From positions 1 to 36,983 of IMG/VR virus record IMGVR_UViG_3300049629_000825: DNA of 36,983 nucleotides, one strand, 5' to 3'. Positions within the stretch are counted from its first letter, which is position 1. The number at the start of each line of letters is the position of its first letter. The notes under the pieces are model-generated. The model was not told the origin of the DNA, did no database searches, and saw nothing but the letters and a program-made list of their open reading frames with translations. Positions 23,535 through 35,405 of this stretch are shown one piece after another. The stretch comes from a virus. The translations under genes and the position numbers were made by a program.

Positions 23535-25454
23535 TTACGCTAGGCCCTGCGGGACGCCCGTTGCCCCATAAGGGGACACCCCGGCGGCGGGTGATGCGAG
23601 CCCAATGAAAGCCTGATCGGCCTTGAACTGGGCGTCGAATAGCTCTGTCTCGGCCTTCGCGCTCTTGAGCGCCGTGTCGGCCTGGGTGTTCTCGATTTGC
23701 GCTTGTGCGCCAGCTTGCGCCAACTGCATCTGCATTTGCTGCTGCTGTTGCGCCATCTGCCCGGCCTGTTCCGCCCGCGCCTTGCGCTTGTCGATGATCG
23801 CCCGCTTGTCCGGCATGGCCGACACGGCGAGCATATCGTCGAACGGCACCTCTTGCGGGCCATACATTTTGGCCAGCTCAACAAGCATCTGGAATTGCTC
23901 TTGCTGCACATTTGCCGTGTCGGGCGTAGCGTCCAGCAGGATATCCACGTCCATTTCTGCCAGGGCGTTCTGATAGCCAAGGGCCATCGAGCCATCCGGC
24001 ATGATAAACGCCTGCTTCCCGTTCGGGTCCATCTGGCCTTGATCGTTGACCTTGAGCGGCTGACCGTCAGGACCGGCCATCGGCTGCCCCTGCTGGCCCT
24101 GCTCATCGGTCGGAGGCGTGTTGATCCCGACAAACTCCGGCGCCCCGTCGTCGTCCGTGATGCGGATGAACTGCGGAGCCGTCCAGAACTGCCGCGCCCG
24201 GTTCCACATCTGGCGATAGAGGCGGAACTCCCATTCCTCAACGCCGCCGTAAATAACCGCTTGCTCAGTGAGCCCGGCCTGTTGCCTGACCAGTTGCGCC
24301 CGGCCTGACGAGCTTTCGCCCTGGCGACCGAGTATGGCGGGGTTAGGCCCCATCCGCTCAATCTCGCCCTTGGCTTCGGCCAGCAGGTTGGATTGGCCCA
24401 TCGCCATATCCGACGTGTTGACCTTTTGCCAACCAAACGGGATCACCCCATCCGGGCGAGCCGCTTCCCGGCGTGCCGTGTTGCTGTCGACCTCGATTGC
24501 CGAGGGATCAACCGCCTGTATCTGGCTGGTCGAGAGAAGGTGCAGCAGCTTCGAGCGCCGCTTGTTAATCTCGTCCTGCGGCCCGCGCATGTCGCGCACG
24601 ATGCCGTAACGATTGTTCTCCCGATCCACGAAGCAGGATTGAGCCTCGATAGGGTTACAGGAGCGGCCCTTGTCGTCGTGGTAGGCGCTAGGCCCATACG
24701 CCAGCAGCCCGCCGCTGTGGAACACGCACCGCTGCCACTGTTGGCCCTCGCGGTGGTAAAGCTCCACGACCATGACGCGGCGCTTTTTCTTGTCCACCCA
24801 GGCGACAGTCGGCGCGGCATCGTTCGGGCGATCCTCGAACGTATCATCGCCCATCACCCCGCCACTCAGCGAAGCCTCTAGCGCCTTGTCAGCGTCCGGA
24901 TACAGCGCCGACACGTCGTCGGAGTATTGCCACTTGGCAATGCCCATGTAGCGGGCGTCCCGGAAGTCCTCACGGCGCGACCGGGGGTCGTAGAAAAACT
25001 CCTCCCACGCAATTTCCTGCACGACCACTTGCAGATCGGCGTCCACCTCAACGATAGCCGCGCAGGTCCCCTCGACGAGGTAATCCTTTGCGCCCCTGAT
25101 TTTGAGGTCATCGAAGCGGTTGAAGTCCGCAATGAACCGCAGGACCTTGGACGCAACGTCGGCGCTTTCCTCGTCCTTCGGCGTGCGGGGGTAGGCTCGC
25201 GGGTCTGTCGCGCCCTGTTTCAGAACGCCAAGCGTCCCGTTAACCGCCGGGCGCACCCGGTTAAACACGTTGTCAGGCTGGCCCCGCGCCTTGAGCGCGT
25301 CCCGTTCGGCCTTGGTCCACTGGTAGCCGTGGTAGTAGTCGCCATCCATCCGCGATTCCAGACGCGCGGTCTGGGTCAGGTTGGCGCTGTCCTCGAACAT
25401 GGACTTGAGCGAGGCCAGATCAGGGGCCTTCGGAGGCGTTACGCCGTCTTCCAC
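23535..25454 (-). CDS. Portal protein (P22-like)
   Basis: 639 aa from the GTG at 25454, which is preceded by GGAGG at 4 nt; an ATG 30 bases further upstream is possible. The core includes the P22-type features RMDGDYYHGYQWTKAERDAL, NRVRPAVNGTLGVLKQGATD and FYDPRSRREDFRDARYM. The C-terminal third is Gln-rich helix (QMAQQQQQMQMQLAQAGAQA), as in barrel-forming ends of P22-like portals. Dodecameric portals form the DNA entry and exit vertex. It overlaps the terminase large subunit gene end by 16 bases. Confidence 0.85.
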   Translation of the reverse strand: MEDGVTPPKAPDLASLKSMFEDSANLTQTARLESRMDGDYYHGYQWTKAERDALKARGQPDNVFNRVRPAVNGTLGVLKQGATDPRAYPRTPKDEESADVASKVLRFIADFNRFDDLKIRGAKDYLVEGTCAAIVEVDADLQVVVQEIAWEEFFYDPRSRREDFRDARYMGIAKWQYSDDVSALYPDADKALEASLSGGVMGDDTFEDRPNDAAPTVAWVDKKKRRVMVVELYHREGQQWQRCVFHSGGLLAYGPSAYHDDKGRSCNPIEAQSCFVDRENNRYGIVRDMRGPQDEINKRRSKLLHLLSTSQIQAVDPSAIEVDSNTARREAARPDGVIPFGWQKVNTSDMAMGQSNLLAEAKGEIERMGPNPAILGRQGESSSGRAQLVRQQAGLTEQAVIYGGVEEWEFRLYRQMWNRARQFWTAPQFIRITDDDGAPEFVGINTPPTDEQGQQGQPMAGPDGQPLKVNDQGQMDPNGKQAFIMPDGSMALGYQNALAEMDVDILLDATPDTANVQQEQFQMLVELAKMYGPQEVPFDDMLAVSAMPDKRAIIDKRKARAEQAGQMAQQQQQMQMQLAQAGAQAQIENTQADTALKSAKAETELFDAQFKADQAFIGLASPAAGVSPYGATGVPQGLA

Positions 25455-26686
25455 GATGCCTCCTCTCGTTTGGCCCGGCCCCATAGGTCCGGAGGGTTGT
25501 TAACGGATGGAACTGCCGTCAGCTTCGGAGCGCGCCTCAGGCCCTCGCAGGCGTAGCGCAGCGCGTCGATGACGTGGTTGTCTTTGTCTTCAAGCACCGG
25601 GAGGATTTCCCCGGTCTGCTTGTCTTCCTTAAACTTGTAGTGTGTAAGTTCGTGGATCGTCCGCTTGCAGCGGGGATGCACAACGATATCGTAGCTCTTC
25701 AGGAACTCGATACCGTCCTCGACAGAGCCCGGCCCCTTCACCGCAGGGATGATCTTGAACCCCTTGCGTTGCATGTAACTGACCGTCTCCGGCCTCGCGC
25801 TATCGGCCCGGATCGTCCATTTGCGAGCGCCGGGCACCGTATCGAACAGGGCTGGCGTGTTGTCGATTTCGCAGCCGACCGCGTAGGCTTCCTGGTCAAC
25901 GTAGAGCGTCCGCCCGGTGATGTAGGCGCGGACTAAAACTGTCGGATCTACCGAGAAACCCCAATCCGCCCCGAACCGGAACACCGCATCCGCTGGCGCC
26001 GTGAACTCTTCGGTCTTCCAGTTACGGAACACCGCAGCTTCGCCCATCCGCTGATAGGCGCCCTCCCAGACGTGCAGGAACTTGTCGTAGTCCCGGAGCT
26101 TGTCGCGCTCCATGTCGGCGCGTAGCTCGGCAGGGAACCACGGATTGTCCGACCAGTTGGCCGTGACCAGCACGAAGTCGGGATCGGCAGCGTTCTCGTT
26201 AAAGAACCGCTCGATTGGGTCCGCCTCGCTTACCGGGTTCCAGCTAAACCACATTTGCGAGCCGGGAGCGCGGAACGTCGGCCTTGCGATGTCCAGCGAC
26301 TTCTGACTGATCGTCTGGGCCTCTTCCACCCAGGCCCGGTTAAAGCCTTCCAGCGACTTGATGCTGGTTACGGTGTGGTTCTGGAGGCCCTGGAAGATAA
26401 ACAGGCTGTCATTTGGCCCGCGAATTTCCGTGTCGGTGATCTTGAACAAGGGCCGCACACCCAGCGCGTCAATCTTGTCCTCGATAAGCTGCTTCACGCT
26501 GTTCTTGATAGAGTTCTGAATCTCACGAAGGCAGGCGGCGCGGATGTGACCGGCAACAGCCTCTTCGACCAGCATCTCCGCAAAGAAATGAGACTTGCCG
26601 CTTCCCCGGCCACCCCGCCCACCCTTGTAGCGGTGAGCCTCTAGCAAGGGGACGAACGCTCTAGGCGTCGGGATTTCGAGGATCAA
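25439..26686 (-). CDS. Terminase large subunit (PBSX / Terminase_3 type)
   Basis: 415 aa, TTG start overlapping the small-subunit end by 26 bases. ATPase motifs: Walker A GGRGSGKS (about residues 25-32) and Walker B-like FNRAWVEEAQ (about 114-123), then MWFSWNPVSE. The nuclease domain shows acidic residues in FGADWGFSVDP, ADSARPETV and KDNHVIDALRYA. It pumps DNA into the procapsid and cuts it. Headful packaging would agree with the permuted ends, but this family includes other modes. Confidence 0.9.
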   Translation of the reverse strand: MILEIPTPRAFVPLLEAHRYKGGRGGRGSGKSHFFAEMLVEEAVAGHIRAACLREIQNSIKNSVKQLIEDKIDALGVRPLFKITDTEIRGPNDSLFIFQGLQNHTVTSIKSLEGFNRAWVEEAQTISQKSLDIARPTFRAPGSQMWFSWNPVSEADPIERFFNENAADPDFVLVTANWSDNPWFPAELRADMERDKLRDYDKFLHVWEGAYQRMGEAAVFRNWKTEEFTAPADAVFRFGADWGFSVDPTVLVRAYITGRTLYVDQEAYAVGCEIDNTPALFDTVPGARKWTIRADSARPETVSYMQRKGFKIIPAVKGPGSVEDGIEFLKSYDIVVHPRCKRTIHELTHYKFKEDKQTGEILPVLEDKDNHVIDALRYACEGLRRAPKLTAVPSVNNPPDLWGRAKREEASWKTA

Positions 26687-27906: not shown

Positions 27907-28169
27907 GCGCGCTTCCTCGCAAACTTCTCGCGGTTGTGCGGCCTAAGCCGTGGCTTGCAGCCCTTGGGATAGACCGTGACGATGGCGCCGTCTTCGACGA
28001 CTACGCTGCAATTCCCGACGTAAACCATGCCGTCAGGCCCAATCGCGCCACCCGCCACGGCCCGCAGCATCTCCGCCCGCGTCTTTGCAACGTCGAGCCC
28101 GTGGACCCGCTCCAGCCAGCGCAAAACGGCGTGGTCAGAAACAAAGCCATTCGTTCGGACGGCGCTCAT
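27903..28169 (-). CDS. Small phage protein of the 'SDHA.LRWLERV.G' type
   Basis: 88 aa. It begins MSAVRTNGFVSDHAVLRWLE, with RVHGLDVAKTRAEM next and a C-terminal beta-rich GPDGMVYVGNCSVVVEDGAI followed by VTVYPKG and a very basic tail. The 'SDHAilRWLeRv.G.Dv' phrase recurs in uncharacterised alphaproteobacterial phage proteins (recall). Shape and size recall small RelE/ParE-like or nuclease folds, but no catalytic set is evident. ATGA overlaps on both sides. Confidence 0.65.
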   Translation of the reverse strand: MSAVRTNGFVSDHAVLRWLERVHGLDVAKTRAEMLRAVAGGAIGPDGMVYVGNCSVVVEDGAIVTVYPKGCKPRLRPHNREKFARKRA

Positions 28170-28360
28170 TCGTCGCCCTCAATCTCGACGTAGTAGCCCA
28201 AGGCGGTGACGAACAGCGTTGCAGGCAGAGCCATCGGCCAAAGCAAAATGACCCCGATATGGTGAAGCTCAATAGGCCCGTCCTCCAGGTGATGGACCCA
28301 GAGCGCCATGCTCACCGTGACGACCAGGCCGACGAGGTAAGTGATTAAAAGCGCGTTCAT
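28166..28360 (-). CDS. Small two-span membrane protein
   Basis: 64 aa with two membrane segments (LLITYLVGLVVTVSMALWVH, residues 4-23, and IGVILLWPMALPATLFVTAL, about 35-54), a short loop HLEDGPIELHH and an acidic end EIEGDE. Overlaps neighbours by 4 bases. Membrane proteins of this kind inside early operons may alter host envelope or exclude other phages; the target is unknown. Confidence 0.65.
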   Translation of the reverse strand: MNALLITYLVGLVVTVSMALWVHHLEDGPIELHHIGVILLWPMALPATLFVTALGYYVEIEGDE

Positions 28361-28992
28361 TGCATCGTCTCCGACGTTTCGCGGTCAGCGGATTGAAACC
28401 GGATCATCGCGGCCTCAATGCTCATCAGCATGGATTGGCGGGGGGATGCGTAGCGTTCGCACTCGGCGACAATCTCCCCCAGCGTCGGGAACCAGCTACA
28501 GCGCACCGCAAGCTCCTCGCAGGCCTTCAGGGCTACGTCGGCGGGGAACCGCCTCAGGGCGCCCGTGTAGAGCGCCAGCGTGAGCATTGCGGCCTCTTGC
28601 GACTTGCGCCCGCCCGCCGTAGCGGCCTGCAACATCGCCAGCCAGTTTTCCGCCTGTTCTGTCGTCGGCGGGGACATTGCCGCCTCAACCTTGCGGAACG
28701 CCGCCGGGAGGTTTGCGCCGATCCCTCCGACCTGACAGCCCTTGGCTACGCGGTAGGCGGGCTTGTCGGCGGGGTATCGCCATTCAAACACCGGCTCGAC
28801 CTCGACGCTCAGCGATGATTGAAGCGAAGTCCGAAGGGCCTTGTCGGTTGCCACCGGATCGCGCCCCACCAGCCACGCCCGCGCCTGATCTTCGGTTGCG
28901 ACACCAGTTCCGCCATGTTGCGGACCAGTCGGACTTGCGGCCTCCTGCACCCGGCTTAGCGCACCAGAAATCGCGGAACTTATCGGCTTCAA
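28357..28992 (-). CDS. Replication accessory protein (helicase-loader-like candidate)
   Basis: 211 aa. The C-terminal half (EQAENWLAMLQAATAGGRKS, LTLALYTGALRRFPADVALK, WFPTLGEIVAECERYASPRQ) matches a recurrent phage pattern of a helical protein downstream of initiator genes: 'y...L...p.dv...al........FPt..El.'. This position is that of lambda P or DnaC-like loaders, but no Walker motif is present, so the role is inferred. The first 70 codons overlap the initiator gene in another frame by 209 bases; the true start may be further in, for example near ATG 28677. Confidence 0.6.
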   Translation of the reverse strand: MKPISSAISGALSRVQEAASPTGPQHGGTGVATEDQARAWLVGRDPVATDKALRTSLQSSLSVEVEPVFEWRYPADKPAYRVAKGCQVGGIGANLPAAFRKVEAAMSPPTTEQAENWLAMLQAATAGGRKSQEAAMLTLALYTGALRRFPADVALKACEELAVRCSWFPTLGEIVAECERYASPRQSMLMSIEAAMIRFQSADRETSETMQ

Positions 28993-29530
28993 GGCTAATC
29001 TCCTCCAGGGTCATGCCCTGTTGCTTGGCAAACGCGACTTCGGAAAGTTGGGGGGACCATTCGTCAGGAAGGCGGGTTCCCTTTGGATCGGGTTTCGCCT
29101 GGGGCTGCGCTTGCGCGGCCTCTAATGGTTCTACTGACGGTTCTACTGACGGTTCTAACGTAGTGGGATAGGACACTGTGTCCGGTAAGATCGGCTCCAA
29201 ATGTCCGGTAAGATTGTCCTCAAATGTCCGGTAAGGTTTTCCCTTAGCGGACACAGTGTCCTCAAAGATTGTCAGCGTGATCAGGTCACTCGCGCGGTAT
29301 CCGTCGCGCCTGCGGCGATGCTCTTTCGTCATCAATCCCGCATCGATAAGCGATACAAAAACCCGGCGGATTTGGCGGTCTGTTAGGCCGGTATCGAGCG
29401 CCAATCGGGCTTGCGACGGCCAGCACCGGCCCTCAGCATCGGCAAAGTTTGCCAACGCCAAGAGAACCAGCTTCTCAGAGGGGGACACCCCCTGAACAGC
29501 AAAGGCAGCGGTGATAGCCTGAACGCTCAT
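28784..29530 (-). CDS. Phage replication initiator (lambda O-like organisation)
   Basis: 248 aa. The N-terminal 90 residues are a winged helix of the HTH_36 type (GVSPSEKLVLLALANFADAE, CWPSQARLALDTGLTDRQIR). A low-complexity linker (about 105-145) holds the EPSVEPSVEPL repeat, and its DNA carries the 23-bp iterons. The C-terminal part has WSATWRNWCRNRR, a common ending of such initiators. An origin inside the initiator's own linker is the lambda O arrangement. It should bind the iterons and recruit the host replicative helicase. Confidence 0.8.
   Translation of the reverse strand: MSVQAITAAFAVQGVSPSEKLVLLALANFADAEGRCWPSQARLALDTGLTDRQIRRVFVSLIDAGLMTKEHRRRRDGYRASDLITLTIFEDTVSAKGKPYRTFEDNLTGHLEPILPDTVSYPTTLEPSVEPSVEPLEAAQAQPQAKPDPKGTRLPDEWSPQLSEVAFAKQQGMTLEEISLEADKFRDFWCAKPGAGGRKSDWSATWRNWCRNRRSGAGVAGGARSGGNRQGPSDFASIIAERRGRAGV
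29127..29158. repeat. 12-bp tandem repeat in the initiator linker
   Basis: GGTTCTACTGAC occurs at 29127-29138 and 29139-29150, followed by a partial GGTTCTAACG. It is in phase with the initiator frame and encodes EPSV repeats, so it may be a protein-level linker expansion; it directly adjoins the iteron array. Confidence 0.7.
29171..29261. other. Candidate replication origin: 23-bp iterons between two palindromes
   Basis: TGTCCGGTAAG occurs at 29179, 29202 and 29225, exactly 23 bp apart, with extended similarity (GAT....TCC...AAA); a fourth, diverged TGTCC follows at 29257. The array is bounded by GGACACTGTGTCC (29171-29183) and GGACACAGTGTCC (29249-29261), perfect 13-bp palindromes. A 23-bp period is not a multiple of three, so the repeats encode different residues each time, which points to a DNA-level role. 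Location inside the initiator gene matches lambda-type origins. Confidence 0.75.
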
Positions 29531-29718
29531 CGTTCACCCATCGTCGCCAGAGCGTCCGCGTGACGGTAGCAAAGCTCTGTGGCGGTCTGACGGCCCACCA
29601 GGGCGCAGAGAGAGCCTAGCGAAGCTTGCAACAGCCCCGTGGCTATCTCGATACGCTCGCCGGGAGTTTCGGCGGCTGCGATCATGCGTTCGGCTTCACA
29701 GACGGACGGGGGGATCAT
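29527..29718 (-). CDS. Small hypothetical protein before the initiator
   Basis: 63 aa. ATG at 29718 overlaps the DnaA-like stop; longer in-frame extensions would run into that gene. Predicted helical: PSVCEAERMIAAAETPGERI, EIATGLLQASLGSLCALVGR and YRHADALATM. No known domain. ATGA overlap with the initiator suggests co-translation and a replication-linked or regulatory role. Confidence 0.6.
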   Translation of the reverse strand: MIPPSVCEAERMIAAAETPGERIEIATGLLQASLGSLCALVGRQTATELCYRHADALATMGER

Positions 29719-30008
29719 GCGGCCCTCGCCAGTTCCCGGCGGGCTTTCGCGCGCCTCACAGCAAAGATGACGGTCGAATGGTCCCGGTCGAAAAACCGCC
29801 CGACCTGGGGAAGCGTCCATTGCCCGGTTTCGACCATCCGGAGCATCGCTTCCTGACGCGGGATGACGGCATCCGGGAACCGGTGACGGCTCCTGATTAG
29901 ATCGGGCTCAACGTCGTAATCAGCGCACACGGCGGCGAAGATTTGCGCCATGGTTGGCTTGATAGGGATACGGCCACGCCAGAGGCTTAGGAGGTAAAGC
30001 TCGCTCAT
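29715..30008 (-). CDS. DnaA domain IV-like DNA-binding protein
   Basis: 97 aa from the ATG at 30008, overlapping the preceding stop. The whole length follows DnaA's C-terminal DNA-binding domain: IFAAVCADYDVEPDLIRSRH (helices 1-2), PRQEAMLRMVET, LPQVGRFFDRDHSTVIFAVR (the 'iGr.fggRDHtTV.hAv' signature that contacts DnaA boxes). No AAA+ ATPase part is encoded here, so it could bind DnaA boxes without acting as an initiator. A competitor of, or helper to, host DnaA is inferred. Confidence 0.8.
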   Translation of the reverse strand: MSELYLLSLWRGRIPIKPTMAQIFAAVCADYDVEPDLIRSRHRFPDAVIPRQEAMLRMVETGQWTLPQVGRFFDRDHSTVIFAVRRAKARRELARAA

Positions 30009-30376
30009 GGCTGCACCCACGCCCTGCCGCGATGGCCGAAAATCAACCGGCCATCATTCAACTGCACCGACGAGGCAAACCCGCCCATGCGGAGGCAAAC
30101 GGCAATGTAAAGCTCATCGCCCGCGCCAAGATCGAACGGCGCGCACCCGTCGCGGGATTGGCCGTCGCTGACGTGACGTTGCGTCACGAGGCCGGGGCCG
30201 GTCGAAACCAAGCCCTCTACATACATTTTCGCGTGGACGGCTTTTTCCGACCGTCCGATGGACTTTGCTACGTCTGCGCAGACAGTCTTACGGTGGCCGC
30301 CCTGGTGGACGCGGGCGCGCAAAACGCCGAGTTCCTCTGACGACCACGGGCCAACGCTGGAGGGCTCAAACCTCAT
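30005..30376 (-). CDS. HTH-containing hypothetical protein
   Basis: 123 aa from the ATG at 30376. The N-terminus (GPWSSEELGVLRARVHQGGH, RKTVCADVAKSIGRSEKAVH, AKMYVEGL) looks like a SANT/GcrA-type helix-turn-helix: charged 'W..eEl..L', then 'vA..lgRs..av..k....gl'. The C-terminal part is beta-rich (GDELYIAVCLRMGGFASSVQ). It may be a small DNA-binding regulator, possibly related to the GcrA-like gene just upstream; function unknown. Confidence 0.6.
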   Translation of the reverse strand: MRFEPSSVGPWSSEELGVLRARVHQGGHRKTVCADVAKSIGRSEKAVHAKMYVEGLVSTGPGLVTQRHVSDGQSRDGCAPFDLGAGDELYIAVCLRMGGFASSVQLNDGRLIFGHRGRAWVQP

Positions 30377-30960
30377 CACGCCACCTTCCGTGCAAAGTTA
30401 GGTTGCGAGAACCCGGCCCAGCTTTTCGGCATGTCGCCGCGCATGACACGGGAATGAGTTTTGCAGTAGGTCGCGCCCTTGGTCGGGTTGCAGCAGGAGC
30501 GCGTATCAGCGCCCTCGCCATCCACCGGGAACGCGCATTCGCCAAACTTGCGAGAGGTCCACACACGGGGCGCTATTGCCACAGAGGCGTCTACCTCACG
30601 GCCATAGGCGCGGGGCTCATGAACAGGGGGAGGGATGACCAGAAGGGCGCCGTTGCCAGCCACGACCAGTTTGAGCTTGGGGCGCTTGAACCCCCGCGCA
30701 TAGGACGGGGCGAGAATAGGCTTTTTGGGTCTGGGAACCGGAAACACCTTAACCGCGTTGTTAGTCTTAGGCGGTGTCGCCTTGCGGCGTGTGGCGTCGG
30801 GCTTCATGGCCCCAATGCGGTGCAGCTTGCCCAGCACGGCGGAACGGGTGACGGTCGGGCCACGAAGGCTCAACAGGTCGGCAATGTCGGTTCCCGACTT
30901 GCCTTCAATCCACCACTGGACGCTCTCGCGCACAATGTCGTCGGTCCATTCAAATGCCAT
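30376..30960 (-). CDS. GcrA-like cell-cycle transcription regulator
   Basis: 194 aa from the ATG at 30960, preceded by AGGTGGGA and overlapping the HNH stop. The N-terminus FEWTDDIVRESVQWWIEGKS and TDIADLLSLRGPTVTRSAVL, GKLHRIG is GcrA's HTH ('WTde.v..l..lW.eG.Sa..IA..lg..TrnaViGKvHRlGL'). The C-terminus FGECAFPVDGEGADTRSCCN and PTKGATYCKTHSRV matches its sigma70-binding Cys/His part. GcrA binds sigma70-RNA polymerase and works at CcrM-methylated GANTC promoters. A phage copy may redirect that system; the linker is longer and Pro-rich. Confidence 0.85.
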   Translation of the reverse strand: MAFEWTDDIVRESVQWWIEGKSGTDIADLLSLRGPTVTRSAVLGKLHRIGAMKPDATRRKATPPKTNNAVKVFPVPRPKKPILAPSYARGFKRPKLKLVVAGNGALLVIPPPVHEPRAYGREVDASVAIAPRVWTSRKFGECAFPVDGEGADTRSCCNPTKGATYCKTHSRVMRGDMPKSWAGFSQPNFARKVA

Positions 30961-31313
30961 CAGGATTCCCACCTTTTCTGAAAGCCCCGGCTTTGCAGTT
31001 TGCGCGTCGGCGCTGGCGCAATGCCGAGGTGTTTTTTACGGGTTCGGTCGGCCTTCGCCCGTTGGGCAACGTCAGCCGCCGTCTTCTCGCGGTGCTTGTC
31101 ACGAAGGGCCGGAAACAGGTTGCTTTCAGCGTGGGCGCCGCCGTTGCAGAGGGCTTGGCGGTGATCCAGGTCCCACTGGTCCCCGGCCATGATCTTGCGG
31201 CCCGTGAGGTGACAGCGGCCCCCTTCACGTTCCCAAATGCGAAGGCGAACCCGAGCGGGGACTTTCGCGTCTGGAGTAGAGCCGATCCACTCAGCGACGG
31301 TGCGTCCGGTCAT
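30960..31313 (-). CDS. HNH endonuclease
   Basis: 117 aa from the ATG at 31313, overlapping the IbrA stop; a GTG two codons upstream is possible. HNH core: CHLTGRKI (about 34-41) in place of a CxxC pair, DLDH (48-51), CNGGAHAESNLFPAL with N65, and KHREKT with H74. Such free-standing small HNH proteins nick or cut DNA, in packaging or mobile-element roles. Here it sits between the IbrA-like and GcrA-like genes rather than near the terminase, so a function tied to the IbrA/B cassette or to replication seems more likely (inference). Confidence 0.8.
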   Translation of the reverse strand: MTGRTVAEWIGSTPDAKVPARVRLRIWEREGGRCHLTGRKIMAGDQWDLDHRQALCNGGAHAESNLFPALRDKHREKTAADVAQRAKADRTRKKHLGIAPAPTRKLQSRGFQKRWES

Positions 31314-32560
31314 GAACACGCCTCCAAGCCTAATGAAAGCTGGTATTCACCAACTCCCCATTCAGCTTTCCGGCGCTTCATAAGGTTAAGATATTTCTTG
31401 TAACCTTCCGACTTGTGCTGCGAAAACCCCATCCCCTTTCCCCAATAGTCATTGCGGAGAAGAGATTTACACACACGGCGCCAAGATGGAGCGCGCCGCG
31501 CCGCTTCCATTTCGTAGTGTGCTTCGTCGGGGATGCCCTCAGGATAACCCCTCGCCATCCACCACTTTTGAAATAGAACGATCTTGTTCTGGTAATGCTC
31601 TTGCGTCTTTGGCGGCATGGAATTGACCAGCAGCGCAGCAAACGTCTGCCACGTGTGGCCAGCGGGTTTGGTAATCCCGCGATAACCATTGATGTTGCCC
31701 CACTCTTGAACGTAGAGCGCACCGCCGTTCGCGCCGTTGACCCTGGCGACGACACGCGCCCACGTCTCCGGCTCGACCAGGTGGAACAGCCACAGTCCCC
31801 GCCGCTGATCGTCGCCGTAGGGCTGACAAATCCGCATGTGCCCCATCGGCACACCGGCCTTGTGCATTAATTCATAGAGGCGGTTATACGGCTTGGCGGG
31901 ATTGGCGGCGTGGTAGGTCCACAGGTCCGCACCCTTCCAGTCATAGATTGGATACGAGTTGTAGACATGTTCCGTGACCTTCGACGTATCGCGCCGACCC
32001 TTCCATGTTTCCTTGCGGGACTGGGCAATGGTCCGAAAGCGGTTCAGGCTTTCATCGCAGCGAATCCCGACAAAGCAGGCCGTCCGCTCGCCTTGCGAAT
32101 ACCATTCGCCAAACAGCGGAACGAACTCCTCAAACTCCATGCCGTCGTGGAAAAACGGATAGAAGGACGGGTCGCTAATGCCTTGTTCCGGTAGCTCCCT
32201 GATCCAGCCATCACGGGCGACGGGATCCCAGCACTTCCAGAACGGCTCATAGACCGAGACGGCGTTGCGAAGGTGGATCGGCAAGCAAACCCAATGCAGA
32301 TCAATCAGGTCTGCATACATGTCGATGCAAACTTGCGCGTGATCCATCGTCAGCTTGTATTGGCCTTCCAGATCGACCAGAAGCAGGCCGAACTTGCGAC
32401 CCCTCTTGCGCGCCTCATCCGCAACAAGGTGCAGCATGACGGTGCTATCCTTGCCCGCCGAAAACGAAAGATAGACGCGCGGGAACTCGTCAAAGGTCCA
32501 GGCGATACGCTGGCGCGCGGCCTCTAGAACGTTAATGCCAATGGGGTTCTTAAGCGCCAT
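31310..32560 (-). CDS. IbrA-like PAPS-reductase-family protein
   Basis: 416 aa, family length. The PP-loop SAGKDS is at residues 34-39 in PRVYLSFSAGKDSTVMLHLV; GLLLVDLEGQYKLTMDHAQV and the C-terminal DUF3440-like part (CFVGIRCDESLNRFRTIAQS, YPIYDWKGADLWTYHAANPA, PSWRRVCKSLLRNDYWGKG) match IbrA. Members share the ATP-pyrophosphatase fold used in sulfate reduction and in DndC-type DNA phosphorothioation. In E. coli IbrA acts with IbrB as a co-activator; the chemistry is unknown. An IbrB-type gene lies two genes upstream. Confidence 0.85.
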   Translation of the reverse strand: MALKNPIGINVLEAARQRIAWTFDEFPRVYLSFSAGKDSTVMLHLVADEARKRGRKFGLLLVDLEGQYKLTMDHAQVCIDMYADLIDLHWVCLPIHLRNAVSVYEPFWKCWDPVARDGWIRELPEQGISDPSFYPFFHDGMEFEEFVPLFGEWYSQGERTACFVGIRCDESLNRFRTIAQSRKETWKGRRDTSKVTEHVYNSYPIYDWKGADLWTYHAANPAKPYNRLYELMHKAGVPMGHMRICQPYGDDQRRGLWLFHLVEPETWARVVARVNGANGGALYVQEWGNINGYRGITKPAGHTWQTFAALLVNSMPPKTQEHYQNKIVLFQKWWMARGYPEGIPDEAHYEMEAARRAPSWRRVCKSLLRNDYWGKGMGFSQHKSEGYKKYLNLMKRRKAEWGVGEYQLSLGLEACS

Positions 32561-32948
32561 GTTGCACCCGCGAAAACAGGTCGGGCGTGCGGGCTTCGTC
32601 CCACTGTTTCAGAACGTCAGCAGCGACCCTGTTGGCCTCGTCTTGCTCGTCTCGGTTTAGGGTATGCCAACCAAGGCGCGTGCATTCTTCAGGAGACGAA
32701 ACGCCGATGCAGCAACCCGCATGACCGAGCCACGCAATCCGGTTAACGTTTTCCGCCGTCAGATTGTGTTCGCAGGACAGGGGCCATTGTTCCAGGGCGA
32801 GCATCATGGCCGAATGAAAAGCCGCCGGGTCGCGCATGAGGTTCGCTGACGCTTGGACAAAGCCCTTGCGCTTCTCACCCCTGACAATGCGCCACATGCC
32901 GTCTTGGAACTCTTCAAGACGCTCATAGTGATGAAACACGCGGGTCAA
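32550..32948 (-). CDS. Uncharacterised protein of the IbrA/IbrB cassette
   Basis: 132 aa between the IbrB- and IbrA-like genes, overlapping both. The TTG at 32948 (overlapping TGA, GGAG 8 nt upstream) is preferred; a GTG at 32939 is possible. Motifs: RLEEFQDGMWRIVRGEKRKG, LMRDPAAFHSAMMLALEQWP, LSCEHNLTAENVNRIAWLGH, AGCCIG, then DEQDEANRVAADVLKQWDEA. Several conserved-looking His, Cys and Trp residues could bind metal or cofactor. I recall similar proteins next to IbrA genes in other phages, but no function is known. Confidence 0.7.
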   Translation of the reverse strand: MTRVFHHYERLEEFQDGMWRIVRGEKRKGFVQASANLMRDPAAFHSAMMLALEQWPLSCEHNLTAENVNRIAWLGHAGCCIGVSSPEECTRLGWHTLNRDEQDEANRVAADVLKQWDEARTPDLFSRVQHGA

Positions 32949-33631
32949 GTGAGCATCTCCAGTTCGGCGCGAATGTCATCGTCCATCAAATTATCGTCTT
33001 CATTGATGGCATCCGGCTCCCAGGCCTCGCTGAACTCCCTATCGGCAAACATTTCCGCAAGCCCAGAGATTTGCGTCAGGCGCAAAACCTCATCTGGGTC
33101 CATGCCCAGGTTCTTGCCGATCTTGTCATCTGACCAATTGCGGCGTTTCAATTCGAGAACGATGTCGCTCATCGCCTCGACTTTGTGCTTACCGCGCGCC
33201 CGGTTGTGGCGAATTGTTGCGGCCATCCGGTCGCCACGATCTGATTGCTCTACACGGATGCAAACGACCGGCAGGTATCCCTGAACGCGCTCTTGAACGT
33301 CTTTGCACTCTTTGCCGACGCGCGTTCTGTGAAACCCGTCAACAACTATGGTTTGATTATCGTCAGTATGCGCGACAATCGGCTGCGTATATCCGTCAGC
33401 CATGATTGAAAGGCGCAACAATTCCATTTCTGGCGGCGCAACGCTATTCGGGTTGTAGTCGTTGGCCTCTACCGTTTCAGACAGTTTCCACAGCACGCAA
33501 TCGACCGGCTCGCTACGGAACGGCGAAACCTCGTGGATTGCTTGGCGAATGTCGTTGATAGCCTCCACACGATCCGCCAAGGGAAGATCGGCTACGCTCT
33601 TTAGAAGCTGCTGCAAGGCTTTCTTGTTCAT
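32945..33631 (-). CDS. IbrB-like ParB-domain protein
   Basis: 228 aa. The N-terminal ParB/Srx-like nuclease domain has NSVAPPEMELLRLSIMADGY (a 'L..SI...G..qPi' segment), VVDGFHRTRVG (98-106, equivalent to the ParB 'GEHRyrA' box) and RHNRARGKHK (141-150), typical of IbrB. A helix-turn-helix (about 157-185, ELKRRNWSDDKIGKNLGMDP) and an acidic tail follow. ParB-type domains bind and hydrolyse CTP or act as nucleases. With IbrA it is probably a two-component functional pair. ATGA overlap with the preceding gene. Confidence 0.85.
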   Translation of the reverse strand: MNKKALQQLLKSVADLPLADRVEAINDIRQAIHEVSPFRSEPVDCVLWKLSETVEANDYNPNSVAPPEMELLRLSIMADGYTQPIVAHTDDNQTIVVDGFHRTRVGKECKDVQERVQGYLPVVCIRVEQSDRGDRMAATIRHNRARGKHKVEAMSDIVLELKRRNWSDDKIGKNLGMDPDEVLRLTQISGLAEMFADREFSEAWEPDAINEDDNLMDDDIRAELEMLT

Positions 33632-35055: not shown

Positions 35056-35405
35056 GCGCCCCCCACACCTTCACCGCGACCAGTCCTGCTAACCGGACAG
35101 GCTGTAGCGCGGCTGAAACGGCCCCAGCCCGTGCCCCCGTGGCTGGGGCCACCCAATTTCGCGTGTTCTGGCATTGCGCTGGCGAACCCGTCTTCCGCGA
35201 CCACACCGGCAAGGTTCACCCGATCAGCCTGACCACCCTGCGCGACCTTCGCCGGGCGCTCTGGACGATGGCCCGCGAAACCACCGGACACCAGCGGGAC
35301 CGGCTCTGCACCTTGTGGGCCGAGGCCGACGAGGCGCTGACCGACACGGTGAGATGGCGTCAGGCCGCGTGTGGAATCTACCTGCTGCGGGAGCAAGTCG
35401 CATGA
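35052..35405 (+). CDS. Hypothetical early protein
   Basis: 117 aa, ATGA overlap with the zinc-ribbon gene. Low-complexity Ala/Thr/Pro-rich N-terminus, then a compact part (QFRVFWHCAGEPVFRDHTGK, HPISLTTLRDLRRALWTMAR, LCTLWAEADEALTDTVRW). No known domain, no membrane segment; two Trp-containing helices dominate. Function unknown. Confidence 0.6.
   Translation: MSAPHTFTATSPANRTGCSAAETAPARAPVAGATQFRVFWHCAGEPVFRDHTGKVHPISLTTLRDLRRALWTMARETTGHQRDRLCTLWAEADEALTDTVRWRQAACGIYLLREQVA

What the first reader, a model, noticed from the sequence alone, without database searches (positions are those of the whole stretch)
29171..29261. Intragenic iteron array: candidate replication origin inside the initiator gene
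Seen: TGTCCGGTAAG at exact 23-bp steps (29179, 29202, 29225), bordered by the 13-bp palindromes GGACACTGTGTCC and GGACACAGTGTCC. The period is out of phase with codons, so protein repetition does not explain it. Known: lambda and relatives place iterons in the O gene linker. Inferred: the initiator's N-terminal winged helix binds these sites; the palindromes mark the array edges and may be binding sites for a second protein or a dimer.
Basis: partly seen in the sequence, partly recalled or inferred. Interest (0 to 1): 0.75.

Follow-up and report, generated by a model that had tools for sequence, protein, structure and literature searches.

The report
Phage replication origin inside initiator gene
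A phage gene for a DNA-replication starter protein also seems to carry, written inside its own coding sequence, the DNA sites that the protein would bind to start copying, followed by a second repeated DNA signal that many related phages of Gram-negative bacteria share.

Summary
TGTCCGGTAAG lies three times at exact 23-bp steps inside a 248-codon HTH_36 replication-initiator gene. The three copies fall in the three codon frames, a fourth is inverted, and GGACA-N3-TGTCC palindromes flank the array. No synonymous shuffle of the gene (0 of 2000) gives three copies of an 11-mer.
Homologues keep the repeats while C-termini are swapped; one with a replaced N-terminus has none. In a sample chosen by protein only, 35 of 85 such genes carry out-of-frame linker repeats (0 of 42 control stretches), mostly 22-24 bp apart, with lineage-specific cores. 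Repeat similarity tracks the recognition helix, not the rest of the domain. Best reading: a lambda-O-like intragenic origin bound by the gene's own winged helix. Nothing was tested at the bench.
Scanned alone, 91 of 120 viral hits lie inside initiator genes, against 1 of 112 for a permuted control. I found no description of it in the searches listed. I read it as an unwinding or loading site.

The parts
28784..29530 (-). Initiator gene, 248 aa, HTH_36 / phrog_1032 'replication initiation protein'
   Evidence: PF13730 E 3.4e-14, 52.8 bits against cut-off 25; phrog_1032 E 1.2e-28
29333..29485 (-). winged helix-turn-helix domain (residues 16-66)
   Evidence: model (pLDDT about 84-92 for residues 11-70)
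29357..29383 (-). recognition helix TDRQIRRVF (residues 50-58), with the RR pair typical of GGACA-type iterons
   Evidence: position in the model helix 51-63
29249..29261 (.). palindrome GGACA-CAG-TGTCC, gene-proximal edge of the array
29243..29253 (-). fourth iteron copy, inverted relative to the other three (TGTCCGCTAAG on the minus strand, one mismatch)
29225..29235 (+). iteron copy TGTCCGGTAAG (CTTACCGGACA in the gene, frame giving PYRT)
29202..29212 (+). iteron copy TGTCCGGTAAG (frame giving LTGH)
29179..29189 (+). iteron copy TGTCCGGTAAG (frame giving LPDT)
29171..29183 (.). palindrome GGACA-CTG-TGTCC, distal edge of the array
29122..29155 (-). AACC element: GAACCGTCAG, GAACCGTCAG, GAACCATTAG at 12-bp steps; presumed unwinding/loading side of the origin
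   Evidence: (family D3); general element
28880..29074 (-). C-terminal DnaT-like domain (residues 153-217), presumed helicase-loading part; weak match
   Evidence: PF17948 E 0.0061, 16.7 bits, below cut-off 25; primosomal-protein PHROGs over residues 126-217

Best explanation
The array is the phage's replication origin, placed in the linker of the initiator gene. The initiator's N-terminal winged helix (HTH_36) binds the GGACA cores: the palindromes as dimer sites, the inner copies as phased sites two helical turns apart. It assembles an O-some-like complex. Opening starts next to it, on the side of the strand-specific AACC(A/G)TCA repeats, and the C-terminal domain helps to load the helicase. 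The linker has to code for peptide and origin at once, so the DNA motif is read in all three codon frames. Shown here: motif, frames, conservation, modular exchange with the N-terminus, co-variation with the recognition helix, and association of the AACC element with such genes. Inferred: binding, opening, helicase loading.
For: Three copies in three frames; homologues keep 23-bp spacing, and in L004 and L019 the third base of the iterons changed T to C in every copy, changing amino acids in two frames. Array travels with the N-terminus: C-terminus differs in L003, L004, L019; L005 (DUF1376 N-terminus, same DnaT-like C-terminus) has no repeats. Protein-only sample: 35 of 85 genes with significant out-of-frame linker repeats against 0 of 42 control stretches; 23 of 25 thinned arrays have a 22-24 bp step. 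Iteron similarity follows the wHTH (r 0.42, p 0.0005; thinned r 0.23, p 0.004), not the C-terminus (r -0.03, p 0.68); in 47 thinned genes of another sample it follows the recognition helix (r 0.27, p 0.0005), not the rest of the domain (r 0.05, p 0.21). Lambda O, a known origin, is picked up by the same test. Precedent: plasmid pPR9, whose HTH_36 N-terminus plus origin region replaces that of pSK41 and replicates (PMC5703833, section 14 read). AACC element.
Against: No binding or replication data. 50 of 85 genes of the protein-only sample show no significant array. Conservation of core bases over the rest of the gene is only marginal (p 0.036-0.06 in three comparisons, none in the near-identical L002). 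No exact TTWTNCACA DnaA box in the window, no GC-skew turn at 29.2 kb. AT-richness in the window is modest (array 50.5% GC against 62.6%; 45% in its poorest 60 bp), and in only 11 of 35 arrays is the gene's lowest-GC stretch just after the array. In the window itself the AACC copies are in frame (EPSVEPSVEP), so there alone a peptide repeat would explain them.
Confidence: 0.78

Rival explanations
1. Operator or copy-control sites: the initiator binds the array to repress its own gene or to handcuff origins, while the real origin lies elsewhere.
For: In 5 of 32 distinct wHTH genes of the GGACA pattern set the array lies before the wHTH, where it could be an operator; plasmid HTH_36 Reps have iterons upstream (PMC3832669, passages).
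Against: Most arrays lie in the linker behind the wHTH, far from a promoter; the same layout is the origin in lambda O (annotated iterons) and pSK41; the AACC element follows the array in the same order in many lineages.
Confidence: 0.12
2. Partition site (parS-like) for the ParB-like protein coded at 32945-33631.
For: A ParB-like protein is present (phrog_2159 E 5.7e-71); palindromes resemble centromere sites in form.
Against: Repeat sequence follows the recognition helix of the initiator in which it lies; the array is absent where the initiator's N-terminus is replaced, in L005.
Confidence: 0.03
3. Peptide repeat or neutral tandem duplication without DNA function.
For: The AACC copies in the window are in frame and code EPSVEPSVEP; viral contigs hold many coding repeats, as the control scan shows.
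Against: Iterons use three frames; 0 of 2000 synonymous shuffles; 19 of 23 in-gene GGACA arrays and 68 of 74 AACCATCA clusters use more than one frame; control clusters are 103 of 112 in frame and 1 of 112 in a wHTH gene.
Confidence: 0.03
4. The AACC element is an RNA signal in the initiator mRNA (translation, decay or transcription control), not a DNA origin element.
For: It is strand-specific: 0 clusters on the opposite strand in 71 linkers and 0 of 120 antisense hits, as expected of RNA as well as of single-stranded DNA. It was not seen next to GGACA arrays that lie outside the gene.
Against: It mostly sits directly behind the iterons, on the AT-richer side, and its spacing of 10-13 bp is about one helical turn. 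No Rfam family matches 28000-31000.
Confidence: 0.25

Closest known systems
Lambda O / ori-lambda (Phage_rep_O, PF04492)
   Same: Iterons inside the linker of the initiator gene behind an N-terminal DNA-binding domain; steps 20, 24, 23 bp in the record; initiator in the O slot, with CII-like or Cro genes before it or helicase, loader or primase genes after it in several named phages.
   Different: Domain family is HTH_36, not Phage_rep_O; core sequence differs; C-terminus is DnaT-like; the AACC element is not evident in the stretch of lambda O printed.
RepA_N plasmid initiators (pSK41) and the pPR9 hybrid
   Same: Four Rep boxes centrally within rep, N-terminal wHTH binds them, linker dispensable as protein; pPR9 carries a pfam13730 (HTH_36) N-terminus with its own origin region and replicates (PMC5703833, section 14). 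The best PDB matches of the model include 4pql and 5kbj (that these are RepA_N N-termini is recalled).
   Different: Firmicute plasmids; structural match weak (E 3.9e-3, TM 0.2-0.4); no RepA_N Pfam match.
repABC RepC (RP-C, PF03428)
   Same: Alphaproteobacterial replicons with oriV inside the repC gene (PMC3155836, abstract); weak RP-C match (E 9.2e-5, below cut-off).
DnaA-trio / DNA-unwinding elements of bacterial oriC (recalled, not searched)
   Same: A strand-specific short repeat next to initiator boxes at the opening side.
   Different: AACC(A/G)TCA repeats every 10-13 bp instead of trinucleotides; sits in a coding linker; factor unknown.

Membership tests
HTH_36 / phrog_1032 phage replication initiators | N-terminal HTH_36 domain over the curated score | tested here: met
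   52.8 bits, cut-off 25; phrog_1032 E 1.2e-28
Lambda-type Phage_rep_O initiators | PF04492 domain | tested here: not met
   lambda O hits PF04492, the window protein hits HTH_36 but not PF04492
Lambda-type intragenic iteron origin (works like) | iterons inside the initiator gene, phased by about two helical turns | tested here: met
Lambda-type intragenic iteron origin (works like) | AT-rich unwinding tract next to the iterons | tested here: inconclusive
   window: modest; family: 60 bp behind the array 52% GC against 59% for the gene, p 2.4e-4, not before the array; lowest-GC stretch just behind the array in 11 of 35 only
Lambda-type intragenic iteron origin (works like) | initiator binds the iterons and fires the origin | not testable with these tools
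   no bench data; co-variation only
RepA_N plasmid initiators | RepA_N domain | tested here: not met
   no RepA_N match at E 0.1; weak structural match only
repABC RepC | RP-C domain over cut-off | tested here: not met
   22.8 bits, cut-off 24.4 (its relative L019 reaches 24.8)

The most novel reading that the evidence does not exclude
Phages and plasmids of Pseudomonadota share a two-part origin written inside their wHTH initiator genes: lineage-specific iterons read by the recognition helix through a decipherable code (for example QY with GGTGCA, RR with GGACA), and a constant strand-specific AACC(A/G)TCA repeat, one helical turn apart, that serves as a sequence-specific opening or helicase-loading signal for a conserved host factor, comparable in role to the DnaA-trio.
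Probability: 0.4. Interest if true: 0.85.

Novelty: new variant of a known kind. Interest (0 to 1): 0.7.

Why it matters
An origin inside the initiator gene is known from lambda and a few plasmids. Here the layout appears as a common rule of a large, mostly uncharacterised initiator family, and it can be read from sequence: origins become predictable to the base in many uncultured phages, and replicon compatibility might be predicted from the recognition helix. The constant AACC element points to an unknown, probably host-linked factor in phage origin opening; clusters of it are absent from the 14 Clostridia-class linkers and present in 22 of 57 others, which makes the question directly testable.

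Tried and rejected
GC skew: no turn at 29.2 kb. DnaA boxes: no exact TTWTNCACA in the window. RNA structure: no Rfam match in 28000-31000. PDB by sequence: nothing relevant. 'GGACA is a universal core of the family': rejected; the protein-only sample shows many cores. 'RR in the recognition helix means GGACA': 27 of 34 GGACA-class genes have RR against 3 of 34 other arrays, but RR is not sufficient: the three RR genes with arrays in the protein-only sample (L100, L101, L155) have other cores, and in the AACC-selected set 2 of 5 RR genes have GGACA repeats (L302, L350), none of 69 others. Counting scan hits alone: rejected as evidence for the AACC element, because a permuted pattern gave 112 hits too; context and frames separate the two. 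For the palindrome arrays the permuted control gave 0 against 59.

Known weaknesses: the wHTH profile was seeded with nine domains, eight from loci of the GGACA pattern scan, so the 41 of 59 is partly by construction (expected 8.1 by position); the 91 of 120 and the control do not share that bias. 18 of 59 GGACA stretches and 29 of 120 AACC stretches had no such gene; some of these are contig ends, other winged helices or simple repeats, by eye only. Related genes are not independent; thinning was crude. Literature: ten searches of the open-access library; only search listings with starts of abstracts, one abstract with outline, passages and section 14 of PMC5703833 were seen. 'Not described' means not found there.

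Full report
What is there. The window is a 36,983-base virus record. The array lies in gene 28784-29530 on the minus strand, 248 aa. Its N-terminus is an HTH_36 winged helix (PF13730, E 3.4e-14) and the whole protein matches phrog_1032, replication initiation protein (E 1.2e-28); the C-terminus resembles DnaT below cut-off. CTTACCGGACA occurs three times at exact 23-bp steps on the gene strand (29179, 29202, 29225 in + coordinates), a fourth copy with one mismatch is inverted, and GGACA-N3-TGTCC palindromes close both ends. Because 23 is 2 mod 3, the copies occupy all three codon frames (PYRT, LTGH, LPDT). 0 of 2000 synonymous shuffles of the gene give three copies of any 11-mer.

Close relatives. 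Viral contigs L002, L003, L004 and L019 keep the array. In L004 and L019 the iteron is CTCACCGGACA instead of CTTACCGGACA in all copies (one copy of L004 has a further change), which means Tyr to His in one frame, Leu to Ser in another and a silent change in the third: the copies change together as DNA. The second palindrome keeps both arms GGACA-N3-TGTCC although Val became Met. L003, L004 and L019 have C-termini unlike the window's. L005 has the window's type of C-terminus behind a DUF1376 N-terminus, and no repeats. So iterons go with the N-terminus. Base conservation in the core over the rest of the gene is only marginal (Fisher p 0.060, 0.058, 0.036; none for L002, which is nearly identical).

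A sample chosen by protein only. I collected 148 loci by protein similarity or family (L083-L230). 137 had a wHTH match, 124 were distinct, 85 had at least 80 aa behind the domain. In 35 of 85 the linker holds out-of-frame 8-mer repeats beyond all 200 synonymous shuffles; 50 do not; of 42 control stretches at 3' ends none does. Cores differ by lineage (GGGTGACA, GGGTGCA, CCCCCGCA, ACCGGCA, GGGGTCA and others). After thinning to 25, 23 have a 22-24 bp step. The 60 bp behind the array are AT-richer than the gene (52% against 59% GC, p 2.4e-4), those before it are not. Lambda O behaves as a positive control: 18 pairs in its iteron stretch, 0 of 200 shuffles, none in the two other stretches. Of 17 named phage or plasmid genes tested whole, 9 exceed all 300 shuffles: Pam5, a Massilia plasmid, Pavtok, PseuP_222, VSN-002, PhiR63_1, Tonitrus, Yavru, ST64B; 8 do not: Sansa (11 of 300), Vibrio 1.036.O, LASTA, D328, DelaGarza, SI5, AP22, BUCT708. 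In PhiR63_1 and ST64B the leading repeat is the AACC element described below.

Who reads the iterons. Iteron similarity correlates with wHTH similarity (Mantel r 0.42, p 0.0005, 35 arrays; 0.23, p 0.004 after thinning to 25) and not with the C-terminus (r -0.03, p 0.68). In an independent set chosen by the AACC element it correlates with the nine recognition-helix positions (r 0.27, p 0.0005, 47 thinned genes) but not with the rest of the domain (r 0.05, p 0.21); before thinning (74 genes) both correlate (0.50 and 0.42). In that set all seven genes with QY at two helix positions have GCACCC among their two leading repeats, six of them with GGTGCA. GGACA-type genes have RR in 27 of 34 (3 of 34 among other arrays), but RR alone does not predict GGACA.

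The GGACA core elsewhere. A scan of viral contigs for two CGGACA-N4-TGTCCG palindromes gave 59 stretches; a permuted control gave 0. 41 of 59 lie within 300 bp of a wHTH gene (8.1 expected by position; the profile was seeded in part from this set). Of 32 distinct genes, 23 hold the array behind the wHTH in the same frame, 5 have it before the domain and 4 behind the gene; 19 of the 23 use more than one codon frame.

A second element. Behind the iterons many linkers carry AACC repeats one helical turn apart. Among 252 four-letter words AACC ranks first for pairs 10-13 bp apart in 71 thinned linkers (62 against 21.4 in synonymous shuffles, maximum 30; out of frame only, 35 against 11.4, maximum 19); such pairs are absent from 61 kb of the other gene parts and upstream flanks; clusters of three or more occur in 22 of 71 linkers (shuffles 4.7, maximum 9) and never on the opposite strand; clustered copies lie behind the array (32) or within its span (23), rarely before it (2). 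The longer form is AACC(A/G)TCA (21 copies in 85 linkers, shuffles 6.0, maximum 12). A permuted word gave 112 stretches, but 103 of these are plain in-frame repeats and 1 lies in a wHTH gene, against 17 of 120 and 91 of 120. In 53 of the 74 genes iteron-like repeats lie between domain and element, with 42 different leading 8-mers and 22 bp as commonest step. L350 combines the window's core (CCGGACA/TGTCCGG, the last four copies at 22-bp steps in three frames), RR in the helix and four AACCATCA. None of 14 Clostridia-class linkers has a cluster, 22 of 57 others do. In the window the element is GAACCGTCAG, GAACCGTCAG, GAACCATTAG at 29155-29122, in frame there; in L004 the copies are 11 and 13 bp apart, out of frame.

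Mechanism. I conclude that the linker is a bipartite origin in the manner of lambda: iterons bound by the gene's own winged helix, then an opening side with AACC repeats, with the C-terminal domain acting in helicase loading. The first half is well supported by sequence evidence; the role of the AACC element is inferred from its place, strand and spacing, and an RNA role is not excluded. The model of the protein (mean pLDDT 62, good for the N-terminal domain, linker 90-155 below 50) fits a wHTH - flexible linker - helical C-terminus; the best PDB matches include plasmid Rep N-termini and DnaD-N, all weak.

Known and new. Origins inside initiator genes are known for lambdoid O (PMC7466680, passages), pSK41 rep and, with an HTH_36 N-terminus, pPR9 (PMC5703833, section 14), and for repC without iterons (PMC3155836, abstract). 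Plasmid HTH_36 Reps with predicted iteron oriVs are known (PMC3832669, passages), and HTH_36 proteins in Stx phage replication regions have been noted, the word iteron not occurring in that paper (PMC8951638, passages). New, as far as the ten searches of the held library show, are the breadth of the intragenic layout in this family, its link to the recognition helix, and the AACC element.

Noticed in passing
window 29715-30020 (-): Stand-alone DnaA domain IV protein (Bac_DnaA_C, E 6.8e-15, 101 aa) just upstream of the initiator; L004 has an ORF that looks alike just before its initiator (by eye). It could compete with host DnaA.
   Followed up: no
window 30376-30972 (-): GcrA-like cell-cycle regulator (PF07750, E 4.5e-13); Pseudanabaena phage Pam5 also has an annotated GcrA gene near its initiator.
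   Followed up: no
window 32945-33631 (-) and 31310-32560 (-): ParB-like protein (phrog_2159) and a PAPS-reductase/DUF3440 protein (phrog_2302); ST64B likewise carries a PAPS reductase gene shortly behind its initiator.
   Followed up: no
window 35089-35099 (-): Single iteron-like site TGTCCGGTTAG, one mismatch, outside the initiator gene.
   Followed up: no
L042 2902-2948, L031, L060, L061, L078: GGACA-palindrome arrays placed before the wHTH instead of behind it, as in plasmid Reps.
   Followed up: partly
L244 (Arthrobacter phage Yavru), initiator gene: Linker holds CCGGACACCATGTCCGG, the same palindrome as in L004 and L019, in a phage of Actinobacteria.
   Followed up: no
L254, L275, L339, L365: AACCATCA clusters (QPSxNHQ) in ORFs that look like other winged-helix replication proteins not detected by my profile (by eye); the element may reach beyond HTH_36.
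   Followed up: no
window 25439-26686 (-): Terminase large subunit about 60% identical to that of Xanthomonas phage PBR31; Aminobacter and Rhizobium phages follow, in line with a Pseudomonadota host.
   Followed up: partly
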